Assembly: GCA_027486935.1 (NCBI GenBank)
Contig: JAIXOF010000099.1
Coordinates: forward strand, 1-64,000
Origin: Cyanobium sp. C1_MAG_00004
GTDB taxonomy: Bacteria > Cyanobacteriota > Cyanobacteriia > PCC-6307 > Cyanobiaceae
Direction: 5' to 3'
Length of the DNA: 64,000 nucleotides
Below, piece after piece: positions 1,666 through 51,794 of this stretch. The notes under the pieces are model-generated. The model was not told the DNA's origin, did no database searches, and saw only the letters and a list, made by a program, of their open reading frames with translations. Each line of letters opens with the position of its first letter. Position 1 is the stretch's first letter. The translations under genes and the position numbers were made by a program.

Positions 1666-2442
1666 ATGAAGCCCGGCATCCTGCTGATCGAAGACGACGG
1701 CGACATGCGCGAGCTGGTGGCCGGCCATCTCGAGCACGGCGGTTTTGCCGTGCACCGCGCCGAGGACGGCATCAAAGGCCAGGCCCTGGCCATGCAGGTC
1801 AATCCCGATCTGATCCTGCTGGATCTGATGCTGCCCAAGGTGGACGGCCTGACCCTGTGCCAGCGGCTGCGCCGCGACGAGCGCACAGCCAAGATCCCGA
1901 TCCTGATGATCACAGCCCTGGGGGGCACCAAGGACAAGGTCAGCGGCTTCAACTCGGGCGCCGACGATTACCTGACCAAGCCCTTTGACCTCGAAGAGCT
2001 GACGGTGCGCATCAAGGCGCTGCTGCGCCGCAGTGAGCACAGCCCACTGTCGAGCAAGCACAACGAGATCCTGAGCTTCGGCTGCCTGACCCTGGTGCCC
2101 GAGCGCTTCGAGGCGATCTGGTTCGACCAACCGGTGCGGCTCACCCACTTGGAATTCGAACTGCTGCACTGCCTGCTGCAGCGCCATGGCCAGACCGTGG
2201 CCCCCTCGTTGATCCTCAAAGAGGTCTGGGGCTACGAGCCCGATGACGACATCGAGACGATCCGGGTGCATGTGCGGCACCTGCGCACCAAGCTCGAGCC
2301 CGATCCGCGCAAACCCCGGTTCATCAAGACGGTCTATGGCGCCGGCTACTGCCTGGAGCTGCCGGGCGACGACCAACTGGCCGAGCTGATCCCGCTGATG
2401 CGCGAAGCCCGCGAACGGGTCGAGCAGGCCAAGGCCAGCTGA
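1666..2442 (+). CDS. rpaA: OmpR-type response regulator RpaA
   Basis: The 258-residue protein has an N-terminal receiver domain with acidic pocket EDD (residues 9-11), phospho-acceptor Asp in [13 protein letters not shown] and Lys in [11 protein letters not shown]-terminal winged helix follows ([20 protein letters not shown], then [20 protein letters not shown]). The block [13 protein letters not shown] and the ending GAGYCLELP match RpaA, the output regulator of the cyanobacterial clock that is phosphorylated by SasA. I chose the ATG at 1666, where family homology begins; upstream codons are open but unlike the family. Confidence 0.92.
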
Positions 2443-2460
2443 TCATCAAGGGGCACCCCC

Positions 2461-3450
2461 TCAAAGCCGGGCCAGATCGAGCAGGGCCACCTCCCAAGCC
2501 AGGCGCGGCTGCACATAGCTGAGCAGGTGGCTGCGCAGGCGGTTGAGGCGCTCGACACAGGCCTGGCTGCCGCCGTTGCGCCACAGCAGCAGCTGCCACC
2601 ACTGCAGCAGCCACAGCTGTTGCTCGCCCTCGAGCTCGTCGCTGATGCGGCTGGCCAGTTGCAGCAGCTCAAGCGGCGCACAACTGGCCAGGGCTCCGCG
2701 CTGCTGGCCTAGCTGCTGCAAGCGCAGGGCCAGATCGCCCGGCAGCTGCTGCCACTGGTGGCGATGCTCGAGCAGGGCCCCGGGCGAACCGGCCGCCAGC
2801 TCGTCGAGGCCGGGAGCGTTGTCCGCTCCAGGGACATCGGCCGGCGGCTCAGCGGCGGCACAGCGCTGCAACACCTGGGCCAGATCAGCAGGCTCGAGCC
2901 GGCCCAGGGGCACGGTCTGGCAGCGCGAACGAATGGTCGTCAACAGTTGCTCGGGGGCAGCGCTGATCAGCAGCAGCAGGCCATCGCCGGGCTCCTCAAG
3001 GGTCTTGAGCAGGGCATTGGCGGCGGCCTCGGCCATGGCCTCGGCCCCGTCGAGCACCACCAGGCAGCCGCGGGCCTCGACCGGCCGCCGGGCCAAAAAG
3101 CGTGAGACCTCGCGCACCTGCTCGAGCCGCAGCTGGGGCGGCGTGCGGCGGCTGACCCCGGCCTCGAGGGCCTGGGACTGGGGCACCAGCCGCCCTTGAT
3201 GGCTGTAGGTGGGCTCAACCCACAGCAGATCGGGGTGGTTGCCCGCCTCAAGGCGGCGGCGCAGGGCCGGATCACCCGCCGGGCCAGCCACCACCCCCTC
3301 AAGAAAGCGCAGGGCCGCCAGCCGGCGGCCGACCCCATGGGGCCCGGCCAGCAGATAGGCCGGCGCCAGGCGACCGCGCTCCAGGCTGGCCATCAGCAGC
3401 GCCACCGCCTGGCGCTGGCCGATCAGATCGTCAAACAGGCCCGCTGCCAT
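2461..3450 (-). CDS. holB: DNA polymerase III delta-prime subunit
   Basis: The 329-residue protein starts MAAGLFDDLIGQRQAVALL, typical of the clamp-loader delta-prime subunit. The Walker A position reads GPHGVGRR, with Lys replaced by Arg, as expected for a subunit that does not hydrolyse ATP. VVLDGAEAMAEAAANALLKT and LEEPGDG follow, with the sensor-type arginine in IRSRCQTV. It acts in loading the sliding clamp at the replication fork. The start at 3450 lies 4 nt after the tmk stop, so the two genes form an operon, as in many bacteria. Confidence 0.9.
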   Translation of the reverse strand: MAAGLFDDLIGQRQAVALLMASLERGRLAPAYLLAGPHGVGRRLAALRFLEGVVAGPAGDPALRRRLEAGNHPDLLWVEPTYSHQGRLVPQSQALEAGVSRRTPPQLRLEQVREVSRFLARRPVEARGCLVVLDGAEAMAEAAANALLKTLEEPGDGLLLLISAAPEQLLTTIRSRCQTVPLGRLEPADLAQVLQRCAAAEPPADVPGADNAPGLDELAAGSPGALLEHRHQWQQLPGDLALRLQQLGQQRGALASCAPLELLQLASRISDELEGEQQLWLLQWWQLLLWRNGGSQACVERLNRLRSHLLSYVQPRLAWEVALLDLARL

Positions 3451-3454
3451 CGAC

Positions 3455-4123
3455 TCAGGATCCCCAGCGCTGGCGCAACGCCTGACGGCAGGCCGCACTG
3501 ACCTGATCGGGGAGCAGATCGGCGGCAATCGGCTGCCAGCCCCGCTGCGCCGCCAGGGCCGCAAAGCCCTGATGCACCCGCTGCAAAAAGGCCTCGCCGG
3601 CCGCCTCGATGCGGTCGGGCTGGTCGCCGCCCTGGCGCGCCCCGCGGCGCCGGGTGGCTTCGGCCAGGGGCAGATCCAGCCACAGGGTCAGATCCGGTTG
3701 CAGGCCGCCGGTGGCGATCTGCTCGAGCTGGGCGATCAGCTCGAGAGACAGGCCGCGGCCGTGGCCCTGGTAAGCGGCGGTCGAACCGCTGTAACGGTCG
3801 CTCAGCACCCAGTGGCCAGCCGCCAGGGCGGGCTCGAGCCGCTGCTGCACATGCTGGGCGCGGTCGGCGGCATACAGCAGCAGCTCGGCGGTGCTGTGGG
3901 GGGCGGCGCCGGCGGGGGGATGGAGCAGCAACTGGCGCAGGGCCTGGCCCAGGGGGGTGCCGCCGGGCTCGCGGGTGACCAGCAGCTCGGCCCCTGGGGG
4001 CATCAGACCGGACTGCGGCAGCCAGGCGGCCAACGCCTGCAGTTGGGTCGACTTGCCGCAGCCATCGATGCCCTCGAGCACCACCAAGCGTCCGCGCACC
4101 TCAGGTCCCAGAGCGATTGCCAT
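3455..4123 (-). CDS. tmk: Thymidylate kinase
   Basis: This 222-residue enzyme phosphorylates dTMP to dTDP. It shows the P-loop LEGIDGCGKST, the DR-box motif TREPGGTPLG, the SDRYSGSTAAYQGHGRG block and LWLDLPLAEATRR. I start at the ATG at 4123 (MAIALGPEVRGR); an earlier in-frame ATG at 4141 would add six residues. The 5' end overlaps the upstream P-type ATPase gene by 23 nt, and holB follows immediately. Confidence 0.92.
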   Translation of the reverse strand: MAIALGPEVRGRLVVLEGIDGCGKSTQLQALAAWLPQSGLMPPGAELLVTREPGGTPLGQALRQLLLHPPAGAAPHSTAELLLYAADRAQHVQQRLEPALAAGHWVLSDRYSGSTAAYQGHGRGLSLELIAQLEQIATGGLQPDLTLWLDLPLAEATRRRGARQGGDQPDRIEAAGEAFLQRVHQGFAALAAQRGWQPIAADLLPDQVSAACRQALRQRWGS

Positions 4124-6440
4124 CCTGCAGCAGCAGGGCATTGAGCACGACCGTGATCGAGCTCGAGGCCATCAGCAGGGCCGCCAGCGGCGGGGTCAGC
4201 AGCAGCCCGAAGCGGGGCAGCAGCAGGCCGGCCGCGATCGGAATCACGATCAGGTTGTAGCCAAAGGCCCAGGCCAGGTTCTGGAGCACCCGGGCCATGG
4301 TGGCGCGGGCCAGGCCGATCGCCTCGGGTACCGCCTCGAGCCGGTCACCCAGGATCACCAGACCGGCGCTGTCCTGGGCCACCTGGGTGCCCGTGCCGAC
4401 GGCGATGCCCAGGTCGGCGGCGGCCAGGGCCGGGGCGTCATTGATGCCGTCGCCCACCATCGCCACCGGCCCGGCGCCGCGGCGGGCCTCGAGCTGGGTC
4501 AGTTTGTGTTCGGGGCGCTGCTCCCAGGCCAGTTCGTCGTCGGCCAGGCCCAGCTGGGCCCCCAGCTGTTGCACCGGCGCCGCCCCATCGCCGCTGAGCA
4601 GCCCCAGGCCCAACCCCAGCTGCCGCAACCGCGCCACGGTGGCCGCCGCATCGGCCCGGGGTTGGTCGGCCACCTGCACCAGGCCCAGCAGGGCCTCGCC
4701 ACTGGCCACCGCCAGCAGGGTGCCGCCCTGGGCCGCCAGGGCTGCACCCTGGGCCAGCAGCTCGGGCGGCAGGGGCAGGGGCAGCTGCTGCTGCAGCCAG
4801 CCGAGCCGTCCCACCCGGGCGATGGTGCCGTCGGCCAGGACGGCTTGAACCCCATCGCCGACCACGGCACTGGCGCCTGTGACGGCCACCGGGGTCAGGT
4901 CCCGCCGCAGGGCCTCCTGCTGCAGGGCGTGGGCCAGGGGGTGGCGACTGCCGGCCTCGACCCCGGCCGCCAGGGCCAGCAGGGCCTCGGCGGTGGTGCC
5001 GGGCTGGGGCAGCACGGCGGTCACCAGCGGGCGCCCCAGGGTCAGGGTGCCGGTCTTGTCAAACAGGACGGTGGTCAGACGCGAGGCCATCTCGATCGCA
5101 TCGCCACCGCGGAACAGCAGACCGCGGCGGGCGGCCAGGCCCGAGCCAACGGTGATCGCCGTTGGCGTCGCCAGGCCCAGGGCGCAGGGGCAGGCCACCA
5201 CCAGCACGGCGATCGCCAGTTGCAACGCCAGGGCCAGGGGCGTTTCGGCGTGCTGGCCCAGCACCCCATGCATGCCATGCAGGCCGTGGCCGGCGTGCCC
5301 CATGTCAGCGGCCGGCTGCAGCACCTGGGGCCACAGGCGGGTGCCCCATTGCCACCAGAACAGAAATGTGGCCGCCGCCAGGGCCAGCACCGCCAGGCTG
5401 AAGCGGCCCGCCACCCGGTCGGCCAGGCCCTGGATCGGAGCCTTGCGCGCCTGGGCCTGCTCGACCAGGGCCATGATCCGGGCCACGGCGCTGTCGGCGC
5501 CGCTGCGCAGCACTTCGAGCTCCAACTGGGCCTCGAGGTTCAGGCTGCCGGCGGCCAGTTCCACCCCCGGTGCGGCGATCAGGGGCAGCGGTTCGCCGGT
5601 CAGGGCCGACACATCGACGCAGCCCATGCCCTGACGCACCCGGGCATCGACGGGCACCCGGTCACCGGGCGCCAGCACGATCACATCAGCGGGCCGCAGG
5701 CCGCCCACCCGCAGCGGGCGGGTCTGCCCCGGTGCCACCAGCAGCTGGGCTGTGTCCGGCTGCAACTGGGCCAGCTGCTCGAGCGCCCAGCCGGTGCGGT
5801 AGCGGGCCCGCTCCTCGAGGAAGCGGCCGCTCAGCACAAAGCCCAGCAGCATCACCGGCTCGTTGAAAAAGCAGGGCCAGCCACTGCTCGGCCACAGCAG
5901 GCCGACCACGCTGGCGCCATAGGCACTGGCCAGGCCGACACCCACCAGCGAATCCATGCCCGGCACGCCATGGGCCAGACCCCGGGCCCCGTTGACCAGG
6001 ATCTGGCGCCCCGGCCCCGCCAGGGCAGCGGTGGCCACCAGCCCATGAAACCACTGGTTGCCCAGCAGGGACGCCAGGGTCCCCTGACCCAGCAGGCCGA
6101 GCATGGCCAGGTGGGCCAGGCTCGACACCAGCACCAGGGCCAGGGCGACCACCAGCTGACGCCATTGCTGCCACCAGCTGCGCTGCTGCTGGCGTTGACG
6201 GCGGCTCAGGGGGTCTTCGCCCTGATCGCGGGCCTGAGCTTCAAACCCCAGCCCTGACAGGGCCGTGATCAGGTCGGGCAGGGCCTCGGCCGGGGTCGAC
6301 TCCAGATCGATCCAGGCGGTGCGGCTCAGCAGGTTGACGCTGGCGGCGGCCACGCCGGGCTGCTCGCGCAGCCGCTGCTCGACGGCGCGCACACAGCCGC
6401 CGCACTTCATGCCCTCGATCTCGAGCAGCAGCGTCGGCAC
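4101..6440 (-). CDS. Copper-type P1B ATPase
   Basis: The 779-residue protein has an N-terminal metal-binding domain with GMKCGGC (residues 10-16). It then shows TGEP (281-284), the transmembrane CPC motif (417-419), the phosphorylation site DKTGTLT (461-467), the HP motif in SRHPLAHALQ and GDGINDAPALAAADLGIAVG. CPC plus TGEP indicates Cu(I) transport, as in cyanobacterial CtaA and PacS; which of these it is cannot be decided here. An unusual His/Met-rich stretch (about 380-398, MGHAGHGLHGMHG) precedes the CPC helix and is probably exposed outside the cytoplasm. Its 3' end overlaps tmk. Confidence 0.9.
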   Translation of the reverse strand: MPTLLLEIEGMKCGGCVRAVEQRLREQPGVAAASVNLLSRTAWIDLESTPAEALPDLITALSGLGFEAQARDQGEDPLSRRQRQQQRSWWQQWRQLVVALALVLVSSLAHLAMLGLLGQGTLASLLGNQWFHGLVATAALAGPGRQILVNGARGLAHGVPGMDSLVGVGLASAYGASVVGLLWPSSGWPCFFNEPVMLLGFVLSGRFLEERARYRTGWALEQLAQLQPDTAQLLVAPGQTRPLRVGGLRPADVIVLAPGDRVPVDARVRQGMGCVDVSALTGEPLPLIAAPGVELAAGSLNLEAQLELEVLRSGADSAVARIMALVEQAQARKAPIQGLADRVAGRFSLAVLALAAATFLFWWQWGTRLWPQVLQPAADMGHAGHGLHGMHGVLGQHAETPLALALQLAIAVLVVACPCALGLATPTAITVGSGLAARRGLLFRGGDAIEMASRLTTVLFDKTGTLTLGRPLVTAVLPQPGTTAEALLALAAGVEAGSRHPLAHALQQEALRRDLTPVAVTGASAVVGDGVQAVLADGTIARVGRLGWLQQQLPLPLPPELLAQGAALAAQGGTLLAVASGEALLGLVQVADQPRADAAATVARLRQLGLGLGLLSGDGAAPVQQLGAQLGLADDELAWEQRPEHKLTQLEARRGAGPVAMVGDGINDAPALAAADLGIAVGTGTQVAQDSAGLVILGDRLEAVPEAIGLARATMARVLQNLAWAFGYNLIVIPIAAGLLLPRFGLLLTPPLAALLMASSSITVVLNALLLQDGNRSGT

Positions 6441-6562
6441 GACGACCCCCGGGGTCGCTCAGGCTAGGGGGATTGGCCGGTGCGGTTGATGGGATTCATC
6501 ACATGACAACAGACGGCAAGATGGTCTGACTTCTGGACCGCGCGGCCCCCGCGCCATCACCC

Positions 6563-7084
6563 GTGCCCCGCTCTCAGCGCAACGACAACTTCATCGACAA
6601 GAGCTTCACGGTGATGGCCGACCTGATCCTCAAGGTGCTGCCCACCAACCAGCGCGCCAAGGAGGCTTTTGCTTACTACCGCGACGGCATGAGCGCCCAG
6701 GCCGATGGCGAGTACGCCGAAGCGCTCGAGAACTACCAGGAGGCCCTCAAGCTCGAGGACGACCCCAACGACAAGGCGTTCATCCTCTACAACATGGCCC
6801 TGGTGTTCGCCTCCAACGGCGAGCACAGCAAAGCCCTGGACTTTTACGGCCAGGCCCTGGACCTCAACGGCAAAATGCCCCAGGCCCTCAACAACATGGC
6901 GGTGATCCACCACCATCTGGGCTCCCTGGCCGAAGAGCGCGGTGATGCCGACGAAGCCGACCGCCAGTACGACCAGGCCGCCGAGTTCTGGGGCAAGGCG
7001 ATCCGTCTGGCACCCAATAACTACATCGAAGCCCAGAACTGGCTCAAGACCAGCGGCCGCGGCAGCGTCGACGTGTATTTCTGA
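6563..7084 (+). CDS. ycf3: Photosystem I assembly protein Ycf3
   Basis: The 173-residue protein begins [20 protein letters not shown], the hallmark Ycf3 start. Three tetratricopeptide repeats follow ([54 protein letters not shown]). Ycf3 is a peripheral thylakoid chaperone for PSI core assembly. The start codon is GTG at 6563. The gene stands alone, divergent from the copper ATPase. Confidence 0.95.
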
Positions 7085-7363
7085 GCTGCGATCGCGGATC
7101 CGGCCCAGCCATCACCATCGCTTGGCTCGAGCTGGACTCTGGCAGAGAACAGACTGGTTCACCAGGCCTGCTGACACCCCTGCACCAAGACCATTCGCAA
7201 GATCTTGCGCTGGGCAATCCCCGCCTGCCCCAGTTGGCCACCCCGGTGAATGACCTGGCCGTACCGCAGATCGGCGTGCCGCTGCTGGTGGTGGTGTTCG
7301 GCAGCGGTCAGACCCATCCTGAAACCGGCAATCTGGGGGGCACTCTGCTTGCCAAGACTGGCT
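7085..7363. other. Spacer between ycf3 and the histidine phosphatase gene; no convincing gene
   Basis: One plus-strand frame stays open to a TGA at 7402 and includes NDLAVPQIGVPLLVVVFGSG. It has no credible ATG start or ribosome-binding site and no family I recognise. GC-rich sequence gives such frames by chance. No terminator with a T-run is visible after ycf3. Confidence 0.3.
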
Positions 7364-8020
7364 TCAAGGCTGCAGTGGGCGCTGGGCTGCAACCGGCGGG
7401 GTGATCGGCGGGGTGATCGGCCCACCGGGAAGCAGGCCAGCGCCTTGGCGATAGCAAGGGCGCTGAAACAGCTCACGCTGGCTGTAGCGCTGCACCTGCG
7501 GGACGGCTCCGGGGGCAGCCAAGCGAAACAGGATCAACTGATCGAAGTCGTCACTAGCGACCGCAGGCATGGCATCCCAACCCAGTCCGCGGGCAAGGGC
7601 TGGCATGCGTTCATGCTGCCAGAACACAACCACGCGCTCGTTGGGCGCCGATGCATCCCGGCGCAGTCGCTGGCCTTGCTCGAACGAATCCATGCGCGAG
7701 GCCTCATCGATCCGGATGTTCACCCCCGTGGCCACCGCCAGCGGTACGGCGGTCTGGTAGCTGCGGGCGTTGCGACTGCTGATGGGATCGAGAACGAACG
7801 TGATGATTCGGTCGGGCTTACCGAAGCAGGCGGGGATCAGGGTCGCCAGGGCAACGGCGCGCTGGAAGCCCAGGGGTGACAGGTTGTAATCACCCCTCTG
7901 AACATCCTTGTCGGCGTGGCGCATCAGGATCACATCCATGGCGGCCGCCGAGGGGGAGGCCGATGTTCCAACAACCAGCACGGCAGCGGCGGCCATCAGG
8001 CCCATAAGACGACGGTGCAT
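7364..8020 (-). CDS. Secreted histidine phosphatase superfamily protein
   Basis: The 218-residue protein starts MHRRLMGLMAAAAVLVVGTS and has an Ala-rich signal peptide ending near SAAA. The mature part opens with VILMRHADK, the phosphohistidine RHG-like motif of branch-1 histidine phosphatases. RVVVFWQHERMP probably supplies the second active-site His. The C terminus is Pro-rich (GGPITPPITPPVA). Substrate is unknown; export to the periplasm is inferred from the leader. I start at 8020 because the upstream in-frame region lacks a leader pattern. Confidence 0.75.
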   Translation of the reverse strand: MHRRLMGLMAAAAVLVVGTSASPSAAAMDVILMRHADKDVQRGDYNLSPLGFQRAVALATLIPACFGKPDRIITFVLDPISSRNARSYQTAVPLAVATGVNIRIDEASRMDSFEQGQRLRRDASAPNERVVVFWQHERMPALARGLGWDAMPAVASDDFDQLILFRLAAPGAVPQVQRYSQRELFQRPCYRQGAGLLPGGPITPPITPPVAAQRPLQP

Positions 8021-8066
8021 GGGAAATCGCGACAGCAACACGGCGGACCCGAGCGATCGCCATAGG

Positions 8067-8255
8067 GTGACATTGCAGCCGGCGATCGACGACGACGGCC
8101 GCCTGATCCGGATCGTCATCGCCGGCCAAGGGCATGCGTATGAACCGGGCGTCAAGGTCATCCTTGTCTTGTGGGTCGGACTACTGGCCTTGATCGGCTG
8201 GCTTTCCTCGATCGGGCTTTGGCGACAAAGCCGACTGGCATCAACCGTTGGCTGA
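8067..8255 (+). CDS. Possible small single-helix membrane protein
   Basis: A 62-codon frame from a GTG at 8067 encodes IRIVIAGQGHAYEPGVK followed by one strongly hydrophobic segment, VILVLWVGLLALIGWLSS, and a short basic tail. It is divergent from the histidine phosphatase gene and ends 11 nt before a long hairpin. I do not recognise a family. The hydrophobic run is the only support, so this is tentative. Confidence 0.3.
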   Translation: MTLQPAIDDDGRLIRIVIAGQGHAYEPGVKVILVLWVGLLALIGWLSSIGLWRQSRLASTVG

Positions 8256-47183: not shown

Positions 47184-47221
47184 TGTCTCCCGTCCTGGCG
47201 CCGCGGCCAGCACCCTTTGCC

Positions 47222-48430
47222 ATGCAGTGGCTCACCGGCGTTCGCCTCCCGCATGCCAGCCGCTGCAGCCATGGCGCCGACCAGCGCTGGCGGGTGGGCC
47301 TGGACACCGCCTCGCCAGAGCTGGGGCCGGTGATCAGCCGCCTCGAACCCCTGCCCCCCGGCACGGCAGCCGCCGGCGACGACTGGCACGGCGACTGGTT
47401 GAGCCCGATGGGGCTCGACCTGCAGATCAACGGTGGTCTGGGGCTGGCCTTTCCCGAGTTGGAGCCCGCTGATCTGCCGCGGCTGCAGGAGCTGCAGGAG
47501 CTGCTCTGGCGCGACGGGGTCGAGGCGATCTGTCCCACCCTGGTGACCTGCGGCGTCGAACCGCTGCGCCAGGCCCTGACGGTGCTGCAGCAGGCGCGGC
47601 GGGCCGATGCCGCTGAGCGGGACGCCCACGCGACGCCCCGCCAACGCTGCCGGCTGCTGGGCGCCCACCTCGAGGGACCCTTTCTGGCCCACGGGCGCCG
47701 CGGCGCCCACCCCGAACAGCACCTGGCCGCCCCCAGCCTGGCGGCCCTGGCCGAACGCATCGCCGGCTTCGCCGGCGGCCCCGCTGGCGACATTGCCCTG
47801 GTGACCCTGGCGCCCGAGCTCGAGGGCGCCACCGCGGTGATCGCCGAACTGTGCAACCTGGGGGTGGGGGTCAGCCTGGGCCACAGCGCCGCCAACGAGC
47901 GCCAGGCCGCCGCGGCCTTTGAGGCCGGCGTGACGATGCTGACCCACAGCTTCAACGCCATGGGGGGGCTGCAGCACCGCGACCCCGGCCCGGTGGCCGC
48001 CGCCCTGCTGCGGGGTGATGTGGCCCTGGGGCTGATTGCCGACGGGGTGCACGTGGCCCCGTCGATGGCGGTGCTGCTGCAGCGGCTGGCGCCCCAGCAG
48101 GTGGTGCTGGTCAGCGACGCCCTGGCCCCCTACGGCCTGGGCGAGGGCCAGCACCGCTGGGACGAGCGGCTGCTGATCGTCGAAGACGGCAGCTGCCGCC
48201 TGGCCGACGGCACCCTGGCCGGCGTCACCCTGCCCCTGCTCGAGGGGGTGCGCCGCCTAGCGGCCTGGAGCGACGATCCCGGCCGCGCCATCGCCGCCGC
48301 CACGGTGCTGCCCCGGCAAGTCTTGGGCGACCGGCGCACCCCGCGCGAGCTGCTGCTGGGGCGACCCTTGGAGCACAGCCTGCGCTGGAAGCAGACAGGC
48401 GAAGGTTTGCGCTGGCAAGTGGCTTCATGA
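47222..48430 (+). CDS. nagA: N-acetylglucosamine-6-phosphate deacetylase
   Basis: The 402-residue amidohydrolase shows [20 protein letters not shown], the metal-binding Glu in [19 protein letters not shown], His in [34 protein letters not shown] and the catalytic Asp in [17 protein letters not shown]. It deacetylates GlcNAc-6-P from amino-sugar or peptidoglycan turnover. ATG 47222 follows purE divergently by 38 nt. Confidence 0.9.
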
Positions 48431-48878
48431 GCCGTATGGCCTGGCATCTGCCTGGCGCCACAGGCATCATTAGCAGGTGGATGATCGCCCTGATCAGCAA
48501 GGCCGACATCACCCCGGTGCAGCTGAACCCAGGACAGCAGCGGCAACAGATGCATCAAGAACCGCAACGCCTACTTGAAATGCGGCGAGCGCGAAACCTA
48601 CACATCTCCGAGCAAGAAATGTCACGAGCGGCAGCGACAGAACCATGAATTCGCGCACTTCAAAGGATCTCTCACCATTGCCAACATTCACATCAAGCAA
48701 AAGCCAGCTATAGCGACCAAGGATAACGTCTAAGACTTGCAGCAGGCGCCCCCATATCTGATCCGCCCTGGCGCCGGAAGAACCGGGAAGAGCAAAGCGA
48801 AAGACACAAGCCAAAAGAAAAACCCACGGCAGCATTCAATGCCTTAGATTTTGAGCCATAACAGGCCAAGACATCGCG
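48431..48878. other. AT-richer spacer before the autotransporter gene; no firm gene
   Basis: From about 48540 the sequence becomes noticeably AT-richer than nagA. A minus-strand frame 48509-48835 (108 codons, MLPWVFLLACVFRFALPGS) has a leader-like start but no family I recognise, and a plus-strand frame ending near 48730 contains ten or so Lys/Cys-rich codons. Neither has enough support to call. TGCCTG/CAGGCA forms a small hairpin after nagA near 48450-48467. Confidence 0.3.
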
Positions 48879-50729
48879 ATGAAATTGCGCTACAAAACTA
48901 AAAAAGTTTTAATTATTCTTGCACTTTTTGCGCAATTGCCTCTTCCAGCTCTTGCCACCGACACCACAATTGATAGCGCACAAACAACAACCCAAGGGGC
49001 TTCTAACCCCCCTTTGAATGGCAATGACTCTCTAACGATTACCCCATCAGGAAGCATCTCGACGAACGAGGACAACACACGCGGCATTTTTGCGACTGGA
49101 GGCTCTAATCAAATCACGAACAATGGCGCCATCCAAACCAATGGCAATGGGTCCGGCGACAGCGGCAATAACGCGGATGGAATTTTTGCGAATGGCGGGT
49201 CCAATAGCATAACCAACAATGGCACAATTCGCACCCAAGGCTCGAGAGCGAGAGGCATACAGACTCGAGACAACAACAATATCATTGTAAACAATGGATC
49301 CATCGAAACAGTGTTTTCCGCGGGGATCCAAACAACTTCCACAAGCAATCTAAACCAAATCATCAACAATGGATCCATACGAACCAGCGGCCTCGACGCC
49401 AATGGCATTCACGCCGGAGGCAGTTTTAATTCAATCATTAACTCTGGATCTATAAGAACAACCGGGGCTTCCACTGCGCCGGGCGAGGCAGCCGGCATTT
49501 ATGCCCGTGGCGGATCCAATACAATCACCAACTCGGGCTCGATCATTAGCCAAAACGGAGACGCAATCTATTTTTTATCAAATAACAATTCACTGAATCT
49601 GCTGAACGGCTCCTTCCTTGGCGGCGGACTATCCCTGGGAGCAGGCACAACTGTATCCATTCAGACCGGCTCAAGCCACTCCAAACTGCTGACATTTTCT
49701 GGAACGCTATCGGGACTGTCAAGCAATGGACCAGTGCCCGTATTCTTCAATCAGACAACACAACAAGCCGCCACGATAGATCCAACCATTTTCGCAAGCT
49801 CATCCGACAATCTGGCCGACATGACTTCGGCTGTCTCCTCTTTGACACCGAAAAGGGCGCCAGGGGCAAGCAACACCAACAGACTCTGGCTCAATGGATT
49901 TGGAAATGCGTCCGCCTATTCCGCCGCAACTTCCACACTTGCCTTCAATTATGAGTTCTCTGGAATAGCAACTGGATACGAACTGATTCAAAACAAGTCA
50001 AGCATACTCGGCATAATGGGTGGCTACGGAAAAACGAGTACCACCGCAAACAGCAGTTATACCCAATCATTTAGCACAAGCAGCGATGGTGGCTTTGCCG
50101 GGATTTACGGGACCCAACATTGGAGAGCCTGGTCGATTGACTATGGACTTTATGCAGGACTTCAAGGATTCACAACAACTCGATTCATCAACGACAACAC
50201 AGCATACGCGGGGAATTCTGCTGCCAATGCTTATCAACAAGGGTGGTGGATGTCGCCAGAGCTTGGAATTAAGTTGAATGCTGGCACACTCAACGGGTGG
50301 AGCATAATCCCCCAAGCTCAAATCAGATATGCCCACCAATGGCTTGGATCTTATCAAGAAACTGGTGGCGGGACAGGCAACGCCTCTGTCACCGCAAGAA
50401 ACGTTGCGATTGGACAGACCTTCCTAGGAATTGGCACGCGCAAATCCATAGACACAAAAATCGGAAAGCAGACCAAATTAACAGTCGAAGGAAAAGCTGG
50501 CTGGATCTACAGAGGCGCAGCCGGAGACAGATCTGTCAATGTATCAATGATAGGACGCTCACTGCCACTTCCAACAGAGATGGAAAGCAGAAATATCGTT
50601 GGGCTTTCAGCCGCCATCCAACTGGACCTCTCAAGTAACGTATCGCTGAACATCAAGGGCGACTACGCATCTGGCGGTGGCATGAGTTTTTTTGGTGGGG
50701 GCTGGGCAGGGCTTAGCATTAAGCTATAG
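48879..50729 (+). CDS. Autotransporter (type V secretion) with beta-repeat passenger
   Basis: The 616-residue protein has a signal peptide (LIILALFAQLPLPALA, cleavage near 26). The passenger, about residues 30-300, is Asn/Gly/Ser/Thr-rich with a degenerate repeat of the type N-x-I-x-N-x-G-x-I-x-T-x-G, for example SNQITNNGAIQTNGNG and SNSITNNGTIRTQGSRARGI. The C-terminal part from about 340 (RLWLNGFGNASAYSAATSTL) alternates like a 12-strand outer-membrane beta barrel. It should expose its passenger at the cell surface. Base composition is far AT-richer than the flanks, with A-rich codons, which suggests transfer. Confidence 0.82.
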   Translation: MKLRYKTKKVLIILALFAQLPLPALATDTTIDSAQTTTQGASNPPLNGNDSLTITPSGSISTNEDNTRGIFATGGSNQITNNGAIQTNGNGSGDSGNNADGIFANGGSNSITNNGTIRTQGSRARGIQTRDNNNIIVNNGSIETVFSAGIQTTSTSNLNQIINNGSIRTSGLDANGIHAGGSFNSIINSGSIRTTGASTAPGEAAGIYARGGSNTITNSGSIISQNGDAIYFLSNNNSLNLLNGSFLGGGLSLGAGTTVSIQTGSSHSKLLTFSGTLSGLSSNGPVPVFFNQTTQQAATIDPTIFASSSDNLADMTSAVSSLTPKRAPGASNTNRLWLNGFGNASAYSAATSTLAFNYEFSGIATGYELIQNKSSILGIMGGYGKTSTTANSSYTQSFSTSSDGGFAGIYGTQHWRAWSIDYGLYAGLQGFTTTRFINDNTAYAGNSAANAYQQGWWMSPELGIKLNAGTLNGWSIIPQAQIRYAHQWLGSYQETGGGTGNASVTARNVAIGQTFLGIGTRKSIDTKIGKQTKLTVEGKAGWIYRGAAGDRSVNVSMIGRSLPLPTEMESRNIVGLSAAIQLDLSSNVSLNIKGDYASGGGMSFFGGGWAGLSIKL

Positions 50730-51071
50730 ATGTCTTCAAACGCTTATACCTCCTGTCACCAAAGTAAGGTCCAAAAAAGCGGAGTACACGAGGCCATCAA
50801 ATCTATAAATTTTTCTCACACTCTAGATTCAAGCAGTGATCCAGCCCTGTCCAAGGTATTCCGTTCACAACCACTGAGTCCCAGGATGCCCCACTCAGCA
50901 ATAGTGGCGACGTTGCCCTCCGAGGTTGAGAGCTCACATAATTGCTTTGAATGCTGTAAGCAACCGTGCCTCAGAATCTTCGGACACGACGGAGGCGGCT
51001 CAGGGCATGTTTCGGGTGCGTACTCCTAATGTGCCGTTAGTTCTGGCTGCGCCACAGCAGCTCTCTGACCG
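50730..51071. other. Spacer between the autotransporter gene and chlM; nothing recognised
   Basis: The AT-richer composition continues to about 51000. Frames in it (for example 50730-51029 plus) have no family resemblance, no ribosome-binding site and no hydrophobic pattern. No strong terminator, tRNA or attachment-site repeat is visible. The last 70 nt presumably hold the chlM promoter. Confidence 0.4.
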
Positions 51072-51794
51072 ATGGCGTCTTCCGATCTGCTCGACAAGAC
51101 CCTTGCAAAGGACTCCGAAAAGCAGGAGGTCAAGGGCTATTTCGAGACCACGGGCTTCGATCGCTGGAACCGGATCTACAGCGACAGCACCGAGGTCAAC
51201 CGGGTGCAGCGCAACATTCGCATCGGCCACCAGAAGACTGTCGACAACGTGCTCGCCTGGCTGAACGAGCAGGGCAACTTGGCCAACCGCAGCTTCTGCG
51301 ATGCCGGCTGCGGTGTGGGCAGCCTGAGCCTGCCCCTGGCCCAGCTGGGCGCCGGCTCGATCGCCGCCAGCGACCTGTCCGAAGCAATGGTGACCGAGGC
51401 CGCCCGCCGCGCCGGTGAGGCCGGGATCCCCAGCGAGCGTCTCAACTTCACGGCCTCGGACCTCGAGAGCCTGGAAGGCCGCTACGACACCGTGATCTGC
51501 CTGGATGTGTTCATCCACTACCCCCAGGCCGCCGCCGAAGAGATGGTGCGTCACCTGGCCGGCATGGCCGAACAGCACCTGATCGTCAGCTTTGCCCCTT
51601 ACACGCCGCTGCTGGCCGTGCTCAAGGGCATCGGCCAACTGTTTCCGGGGCCCAGCAAGACCACCCGCGCCTACACCCTGCGCGAAGCGGGCATCGTCGC
51701 TGCCGCCGCGGCCTGCGGCTTCAAGCCGGTGCGCCGCAGCCTCAACAAGGCCCCCTTCTACTTTTCACGCCTGATCGCCTTCGAGCGGGGCTGA
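51072..51794 (+). CDS. chlM: Magnesium protoporphyrin IX methyltransferase
   Basis: The 240-residue SAM-dependent enzyme begins MASSDLLDKTLAKDSEKQEV and has KGYFETTGFDRWNRIYSDST, the SAM site FCDAGCGVGSLSLPLAQLGA and LIVSFAPYTPLLAVLKGIGQ with LFPGPSKTTRAY. It methylates Mg-protoporphyrin in chlorophyll synthesis. GC content returns to the genomic norm here. The stop is 1 nt from the end of the convergent DUF167 relic. Confidence 0.95.
   Translation: MASSDLLDKTLAKDSEKQEVKGYFETTGFDRWNRIYSDSTEVNRVQRNIRIGHQKTVDNVLAWLNEQGNLANRSFCDAGCGVGSLSLPLAQLGAGSIAASDLSEAMVTEAARRAGEAGIPSERLNFTASDLESLEGRYDTVICLDVFIHYPQAAAEEMVRHLAGMAEQHLIVSFAPYTPLLAVLKGIGQLFPGPSKTTRAYTLREAGIVAAAAACGFKPVRRSLNKAPFYFSRLIAFERG

What the first reader, a model, noticed from the sequence alone, without database searches (positions are those of the whole stretch)
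48500..51060. AT-rich island carrying a classical autotransporter
Base composition drops sharply between nagA and chlM. The only solid gene encodes a signal peptide, an Asn/Gly-rich repeat passenger and a C-terminal beta barrel. Classical type Va autotransporters are unusual in cyanobacteria. The passenger repeats suggest a surface adhesin or grazing/phage-resistance factor. No integrase, tRNA or direct repeats were seen at the edges, so how it arrived is unclear.
Basis: partly seen in the sequence, partly recalled or inferred. Interest (0 to 1): 0.62.

Follow-up and report, generated by a model that had tools for sequence, protein, structure and literature searches.

The report
Acquired surface autotransporter in a picocyanobacterium
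A low-GC stretch of a picocyanobacterial genome carries one gene for a self-exporting surface protein that was inserted between two neighbouring housekeeping genes; it is a new, narrowly distributed member of a well-known protein class, probably an adhesin, rather than a new kind of system.

Summary
GC falls from about 0.68-0.74 to 0.50 between nagA and chlM, the lowest stretch in the window, and the 616-aa ORF (48879-50729) is a classical type Va autotransporter. It has a signal peptide, a beta-helix passenger with six I-x-N-x-G-x-I repeats, an alpha-helical linker and a 12-strand PF03797 barrel. The modelled barrel matches EstA, AaaA, NalP, EspP and AIDA-I.

The insertion is supported: 47 of 53 relatives have only 6-231 bp between nagA and chlM, including all three same-genus genomes that could be read. 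None has this gene there. Six carry other, unrelated inserts, so this junction tolerates insertion. Full-length homologues were found only in Synechococcus sp. HJ21-Hayes (two copies, about 56% and 46-51% identity). One of these lies in a low-GC stretch beside a tyrosine integrase and tRNA-Ser. A broken copy occurs in one further genome. No integrase, tRNA or edge repeats were found at the focal insert.

"Unusual in cyanobacteria" holds for the phylum but not for this family (86 of 300 genomes have PF03797; the focal genome has two). Adhesion is the likeliest role but is inferred only; grazing or phage resistance is untested.

A side finding may be more interesting: an HMW1C-like N-glucosyltransferase next to the genome's second autotransporter.

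The parts
48431..51030 (.). low-GC insert between nagA and chlM (approximate edges)
   Evidence: GC 0.50 vs 0.675 mean; 47 of 53 relatives have 6-231 bp here
48879..50729 (+). autotransporter gene, 616 aa
48879..48956 (+). Sec signal peptide, residues 1-26 (MKLRYKTKKVLIILALFAQLPLPALA)
   Evidence: sequence inspection; homologues have a comparable hydrophobic leader ending ..LA before the mature DTT start
48957..49784 (+). passenger, residues 27-302, predicted beta-helix with Asn/Gly-rich repeats
   Evidence: AlphaFold2 pLDDT mostly 80-95 over residues 51-250; six I-x-N-x-G-x-I motifs
49083..49556 (+). repeat core of the passenger
   Evidence: DNA repeat families D1-D3
49785..49841 (+). alpha-helical linker, residues 303-321
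   Evidence: barrel model
49884..50726 (+). 12-strand translocator barrel, residues 336-616
   Evidence: PF03797 92 bits; model pLDDT 82, pTM 0.79; Foldseek to EstA, NalP, EspP
48431..48878 (.). left flank of insert, no long ORF, no homologue beyond matches of 22-55 bp in 200 family genomes
50730..51030 (.). right flank of insert, no homologue found
51037..51054 (+). remnant of the conserved element upstream of chlM (TAGGATCCGCGCCA in relatives); marks the right edge
47219..48430 (+). nagA-like gene, left neighbour
   Evidence: TIGR00221 188.9 bits, below its cut-off of 225.65
51072..51794 (+). chlM, right neighbour
   Evidence: TIGR02021 214.6 bits, above its cut-off of 158.9

Best explanation
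The gene encodes a monomeric (type Va) autotransporter. Sec exports it, the BAM (Omp85) machinery inserts the 12-strand barrel in the outer membrane, and the short Asn/Gly-rich beta-helix passenger is displayed on the surface, probably uncleaved, where it most likely mediates contact with surfaces, particles or other cells. It is not ancestral at this site: a DNA segment of about 2.6 kb was gained between nagA and chlM in this lineage, from a small gene family shared with few other picocyanobacteria, which in one relative sits beside an integrase and a tRNA gene. Architecture and insertion are shown by sequence comparison and modelling. Surface display is inferred from the family. Adhesion and the mode of transfer are inference.
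For: PF03797 match. A barrel model from 46 barrels gives linker helix plus 12 strands, pLDDT 82. Nearest solved folds are EstA, AaaA, NalP, EspP, Hbp, AIDA-I and BrkA, TM up to 0.80, and sequence profiles agree. Passenger modelled as a beta-helix. Omp85 present in the genome. Insertion: nagA-chlM gap 6-231 bp in 47 of 53 relatives and no autotransporter there in any; GC3 0.50 versus mostly 0.84-0.90; element upstream of chlM retained. Patchy homologues: only G217 and a broken copy in G137 among 400 family genomes at more than 40% identity, no other in 339 phylum genomes, only HJ21-Hayes in the genome-contig collection. Mobility: the G217 C14 homologue lies about 5.6 kb from a tyrosine integrase next to tRNA-Ser, in sequence of about 50% GC. 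Amino-acid changes are far fewer than synonymous ones (pN 0.27-0.32, pS 0.74-0.82), so the protein is maintained.
Against: No mobility gene or edge repeats at the focal insert, and the relative's integrase has no match in the focal genome. The two flanks of the insert have no identifiable source. Autotransporter genes of this subfamily are low-GC in G217 too (GC3 0.54-0.55), so low GC is only weak evidence of a foreign donor. The barrel ends in Leu, whereas the homologues end in Phe. No passenger function can be read: no Pfam domain, no significant PDB fold match.
Confidence: 0.68

Rival explanations
1. The gene is old and native at this site and was lost in the other lineages; its low GC reflects selection on surface beta-helix proteins, not transfer.
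For: Homologues in G217 are also low-GC (GC3 0.54-0.55) and so is the genome's second autotransporter gene (GC 0.55).
Against: 47 of 53 relatives, including three same-genus genomes, have a tight nagA-chlM junction; many parallel clean losses would be needed. The flanks of the insert have no counterpart in relatives.
Confidence: 0.1
2. The passenger is an enzyme or a competition toxin rather than an adhesin.
For: Right-handed beta-helices include lyases, epimerases and tailspikes, the best though non-significant folds; the string GDSG occurs in the passenger (DNA around 49155, residues 93-96).
Against: No Pfam enzyme domain. GDSG is in a loop not conserved in the homologues. The passenger is a short array of similar rungs.
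Confidence: 0.15
3. The insert is an assembly chimera or contamination.
For: The genome is a 239-contig draft; reads were not available.
Against: The insert is internal to a 97.6-kb contig, its only full-length relatives are in the same family, and the element upstream of chlM is recognisable at the edge.
Confidence: 0.04

Closest known systems
Type Va autotransporters with AIDA-I/EspP/NalP/EstA-type 12-strand translocators (PF03797)
   Same: Signal peptide, beta-helix passenger, alpha-helical linker, 12-strand barrel; the modelled barrel superposes on EstA (TMq 0.74), AaaA (0.76) and NalP (TMt 0.79-0.80).
   Different: About 11-18% sequence identity to the solved barrels; short passenger of about 275 residues without catalytic domain or a recognised self-cleavage motif; C-terminal Leu.
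Autotransporter pair of Synechococcus sp. HJ21-Hayes (L079/L122 and L080/L123)
   Same: Same architecture and repeat type, 56% and 46-51% identity over the full length.
   Different: Different chromosomal places; the C14 copy has a longer passenger and lies beside an integrase and tRNA-Ser.
The focal genome's second autotransporter (G000:C222:2260-8103)
   Same: PF03797 barrel.
   Different: 1947 aa, ten PATR repeats (PF12951), no significant full-length similarity to the focal protein, adjacent to an HMW1C-like glycosyltransferase.

Membership tests
Type Va autotransporter | N-terminal Sec signal peptide | tested here: met
   By inspection only: KLRYKTKK n-region, VLIILALFAQLPL core, ALA end; the homologues have a comparable leader. 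No predictor was available.
Type Va autotransporter | C-terminal 12-strand barrel of PF03797 | tested here: met
   92 bits; 12 main strands in the model, pLDDT 82; Foldseek and HMM matches to solved translocators.
Type Va autotransporter | Alpha-helical linker before the barrel | tested here: met
   Residues 303-321 helical in the model.
Type Va autotransporter | Beta-helical passenger on the same chain | tested here: met
   Predicted, pLDDT mostly 80-95 over residues 51-250.
Type Va autotransporter | Host has BAM/Omp85 | tested here: met
   PF01103 at G000:C79, 175 bits.
Type Va autotransporter | Passenger exposed on the cell surface | not testable with these tools
   Needs proteomics or protease shaving.
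Adhesin / self-associating autotransporter | Measured adhesion or aggregation | not testable with these tools
   Inference from architecture only.
Integrase/tRNA genomic island | Integrase, tRNA or att repeats at the edges of the focal insert | tested here: not met
   None found; present only near the homologue in G217.
HMW1C-glycosylated adhesin | N-x-S/T sequons enriched in the passenger | tested here: not met
   8 observed, 11 expected.

The most novel reading that the evidence does not exclude
The focal protein belongs to a small, lineage-private family of surface autotransporters that circulates among picocyanobacteria on integrase islands and can settle as single genes at tolerant junctions such as nagA-chlM, changing the cell surface strain by strain in ways that alter grazing or phage attachment.
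Probability: 0.2. Interest if true: 0.45.

Novelty: new member of a known kind. Interest (0 to 1): 0.27.

Why it matters
Surface proteins are the main variable interface between picocyanobacteria and their grazers, phages and particles. This case shows the gain of one autotransporter at a site that is empty in the same-genus genomes that could be read, and shows that this family is far from free of type Va proteins. It is useful as an example and for annotation, but the mechanism itself is well known.

Tried and rejected
Edge repeats, tRNA and integrase at the insert: none. Homology of the insert's flanks: none beyond matches of 22-55 bp. Phage or plasmid origin: no phage or viral-contig relative; on plasmids only about 25% identity to Rhizobiales barrels. 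Passenger function by fold: only non-significant generic beta-helices in PDB; the viral library gave one match below E=0.001 with TM 0.13, which I discount because that model's barrel half was poor. AlphaFold on three full-length sequences left the barrel unresolved; a 46-barrel alignment resolved it. Glycosylation of the focal passenger by the genome's HMW1C-like enzyme: considered because of N-G-S/T in the repeats, dropped because sequons are not enriched. Serine protease reading of GDSG: dropped, not conserved. Literature: no paper found on the function of a picocyanobacterial type Va autotransporter in the held library.

Full report
What is there. The stretch 48431-51030 has GC 0.502 in a window whose 2.6-kb mean is 0.675 (sd 0.040); nothing else in the window falls below 0.625, and its tetranucleotide profile is the most deviant. 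Its only long ORF is 48879-50729, 616 aa, with GC3 0.50 against 0.84-0.90 in five neighbouring genes and 0.72 in a sixth. The left neighbour is nagA-like (TIGR00221, below its cut-off) and the right neighbour is chlM (TIGR02021, above its cut-off).

What the protein is. Pfam PF03797 (autotransporter beta-domain) matches residues 336-592 with 92 bits. A model built on an alignment of 46 barrels from the same family of cyanobacteria gives a helix at 303-321 and 12 main strands, mean pLDDT 82, pTM 0.79. The nearest solved structures are EstA, AaaA, NalP, EspP, Hbp, AIDA-I and BrkA, all classical autotransporters, and a profile search finds the same group. The passenger model from three full-length homologues is a beta-helix with pLDDT mostly 80-95. 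It holds six I-x-N-x-G-x-I repeats, far above chance. The signal peptide is clear by eye. Omp85, needed for barrel insertion, is in the genome. So the architecture is that of a classical autotransporter; surface exposure itself was not tested.

How it got there. In 53 relatives where both genes were read, nagA and chlM are 6-231 bp apart in 47. Six carry other inserts of 0.4-6.1 kb, and none has this autotransporter. The three same-genus genomes with a readable junction are all empty (70, 231 and 89 bp). Relatives have a conserved TAGGATCCGCGCCA-type element just upstream of chlM; the focal genome keeps a recognisable form of it at 51037-51054, which sets the right edge of the insert at about 51030. 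The other inserts differ in content. G030 has 6.1 kb at GC 0.486 with glycosyltransferase and FkbM methyltransferase genes. G143 has PIN and HicA genes plus a chlM fragment. G140 has a PIN-like pair similar to G143's, by reading its ORFs. The junction is therefore a tolerant place, not one used by a single element.

Relatives of the gene. Among 400 genomes of the family the protein search found full-length homologues only in G217 (two, 57% and 50%) and broken pieces in G137. G049 matches only in the barrel at 23-26%. A search of 339 genomes across the phylum with a three-row profile found no other. The genome-contig scan named G217: Synechococcus sp. HJ21-Hayes. Phage, viral-contig and plasmid collections gave no close relative. 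The G217 C14 homologue lies in about 9.5 kb of roughly 50% GC sequence that begins beside tRNA-Ser and a tyrosine integrase (PHROG integrase 91.6 bits; Pfam Phage_integrase just below its cut-off) and runs to the contig end. No repeat of the tRNA end was found that would mark the far side. That integrase has no match in the focal genome. The link from island to single-gene insertion is therefore suggestive only. Between the focal gene and its G217 homologue synonymous sites are near saturation (pS 0.74-0.82) while pN is 0.27-0.32, so the protein has been kept functional.

How unusual. PF03797 is found in 86 of 300 genomes of this family, and the focal genome has a second one of a different kind (C222). 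In a phylum-wide sample 9 of 102 other genomes match, only one strongly. A 2015 survey reported autotransporter-domain proteins as specific for Synechococcus strains among cyanobacteria (PMC4365693).

Function. The likeliest role is surface adhesion, by architecture and by the variable number of passenger repeats between homologues. No catalytic domain was found, and structural matches of the passenger were generic and not significant. Grazing or phage resistance remains a hypothesis. Samples were drawn evenly from larger groups, so absence means absence in those samples.

Side finding. Next to the second autotransporter (1947 aa, ten PATR repeats) lies a divergent gene that reaches the contig edge but is nearly complete, and matches HMW1C-like N-glucosyltransferases over its length (NF049992 575 bits, below that model's cut-off of 1000; PDB 3q3e 464 bits). 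The HMW1C_N domain occurs in 5 of 300 family genomes, all of which also have PF03797 (hypergeometric 0.0018, not corrected for relatedness). The second autotransporter has 63 N-x-S/T sequons against 41 in the reversed order. This could be an adhesin-glycosylation pair and deserves its own study. It does not concern the focal protein, whose sequons are not enriched.

Noticed in passing
G000:C222 (L084) 2-1843 minus and 2260-8103 plus: HMW1C-like N-glucosyltransferase gene divergent from a 1947-aa PATR autotransporter rich in N-x-S/T sequons; HMW1C_N is rare in the family (5 of 300 genomes) and always with PF03797. Possible adhesin glycosylation pair in a cyanobacterium.
   Followed up: partly
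nagA-chlM junction in L076, L077, L126, L129, L130, L085: Six of 53 relatives carry other inserts of 0.4-6.1 kb at the same junction (glycosyltransferases, PIN and HicA toxin-antitoxin genes, others).
   Followed up: partly
L078 9302-9469, L077 9188-9532, L085 10183-10371: Partial extra copies of chlM near the intact gene in three genomes, of the 3' end in two of them; may mark recombination events at chlM.
   Followed up: no
L080 9875-19843 (Synechococcus sp. HJ21-Hayes): tRNA-Ser followed by a tyrosine integrase and about 8 kb of low-GC sequence with proteins of unknown family and the autotransporter; runs to the contig edge.
   Followed up: partly
window 51037-51054 and relatives: Conserved TAGGATCCGCGCCA element a short distance upstream of chlM in most relatives examined, promoter-like.
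   Followed up: no
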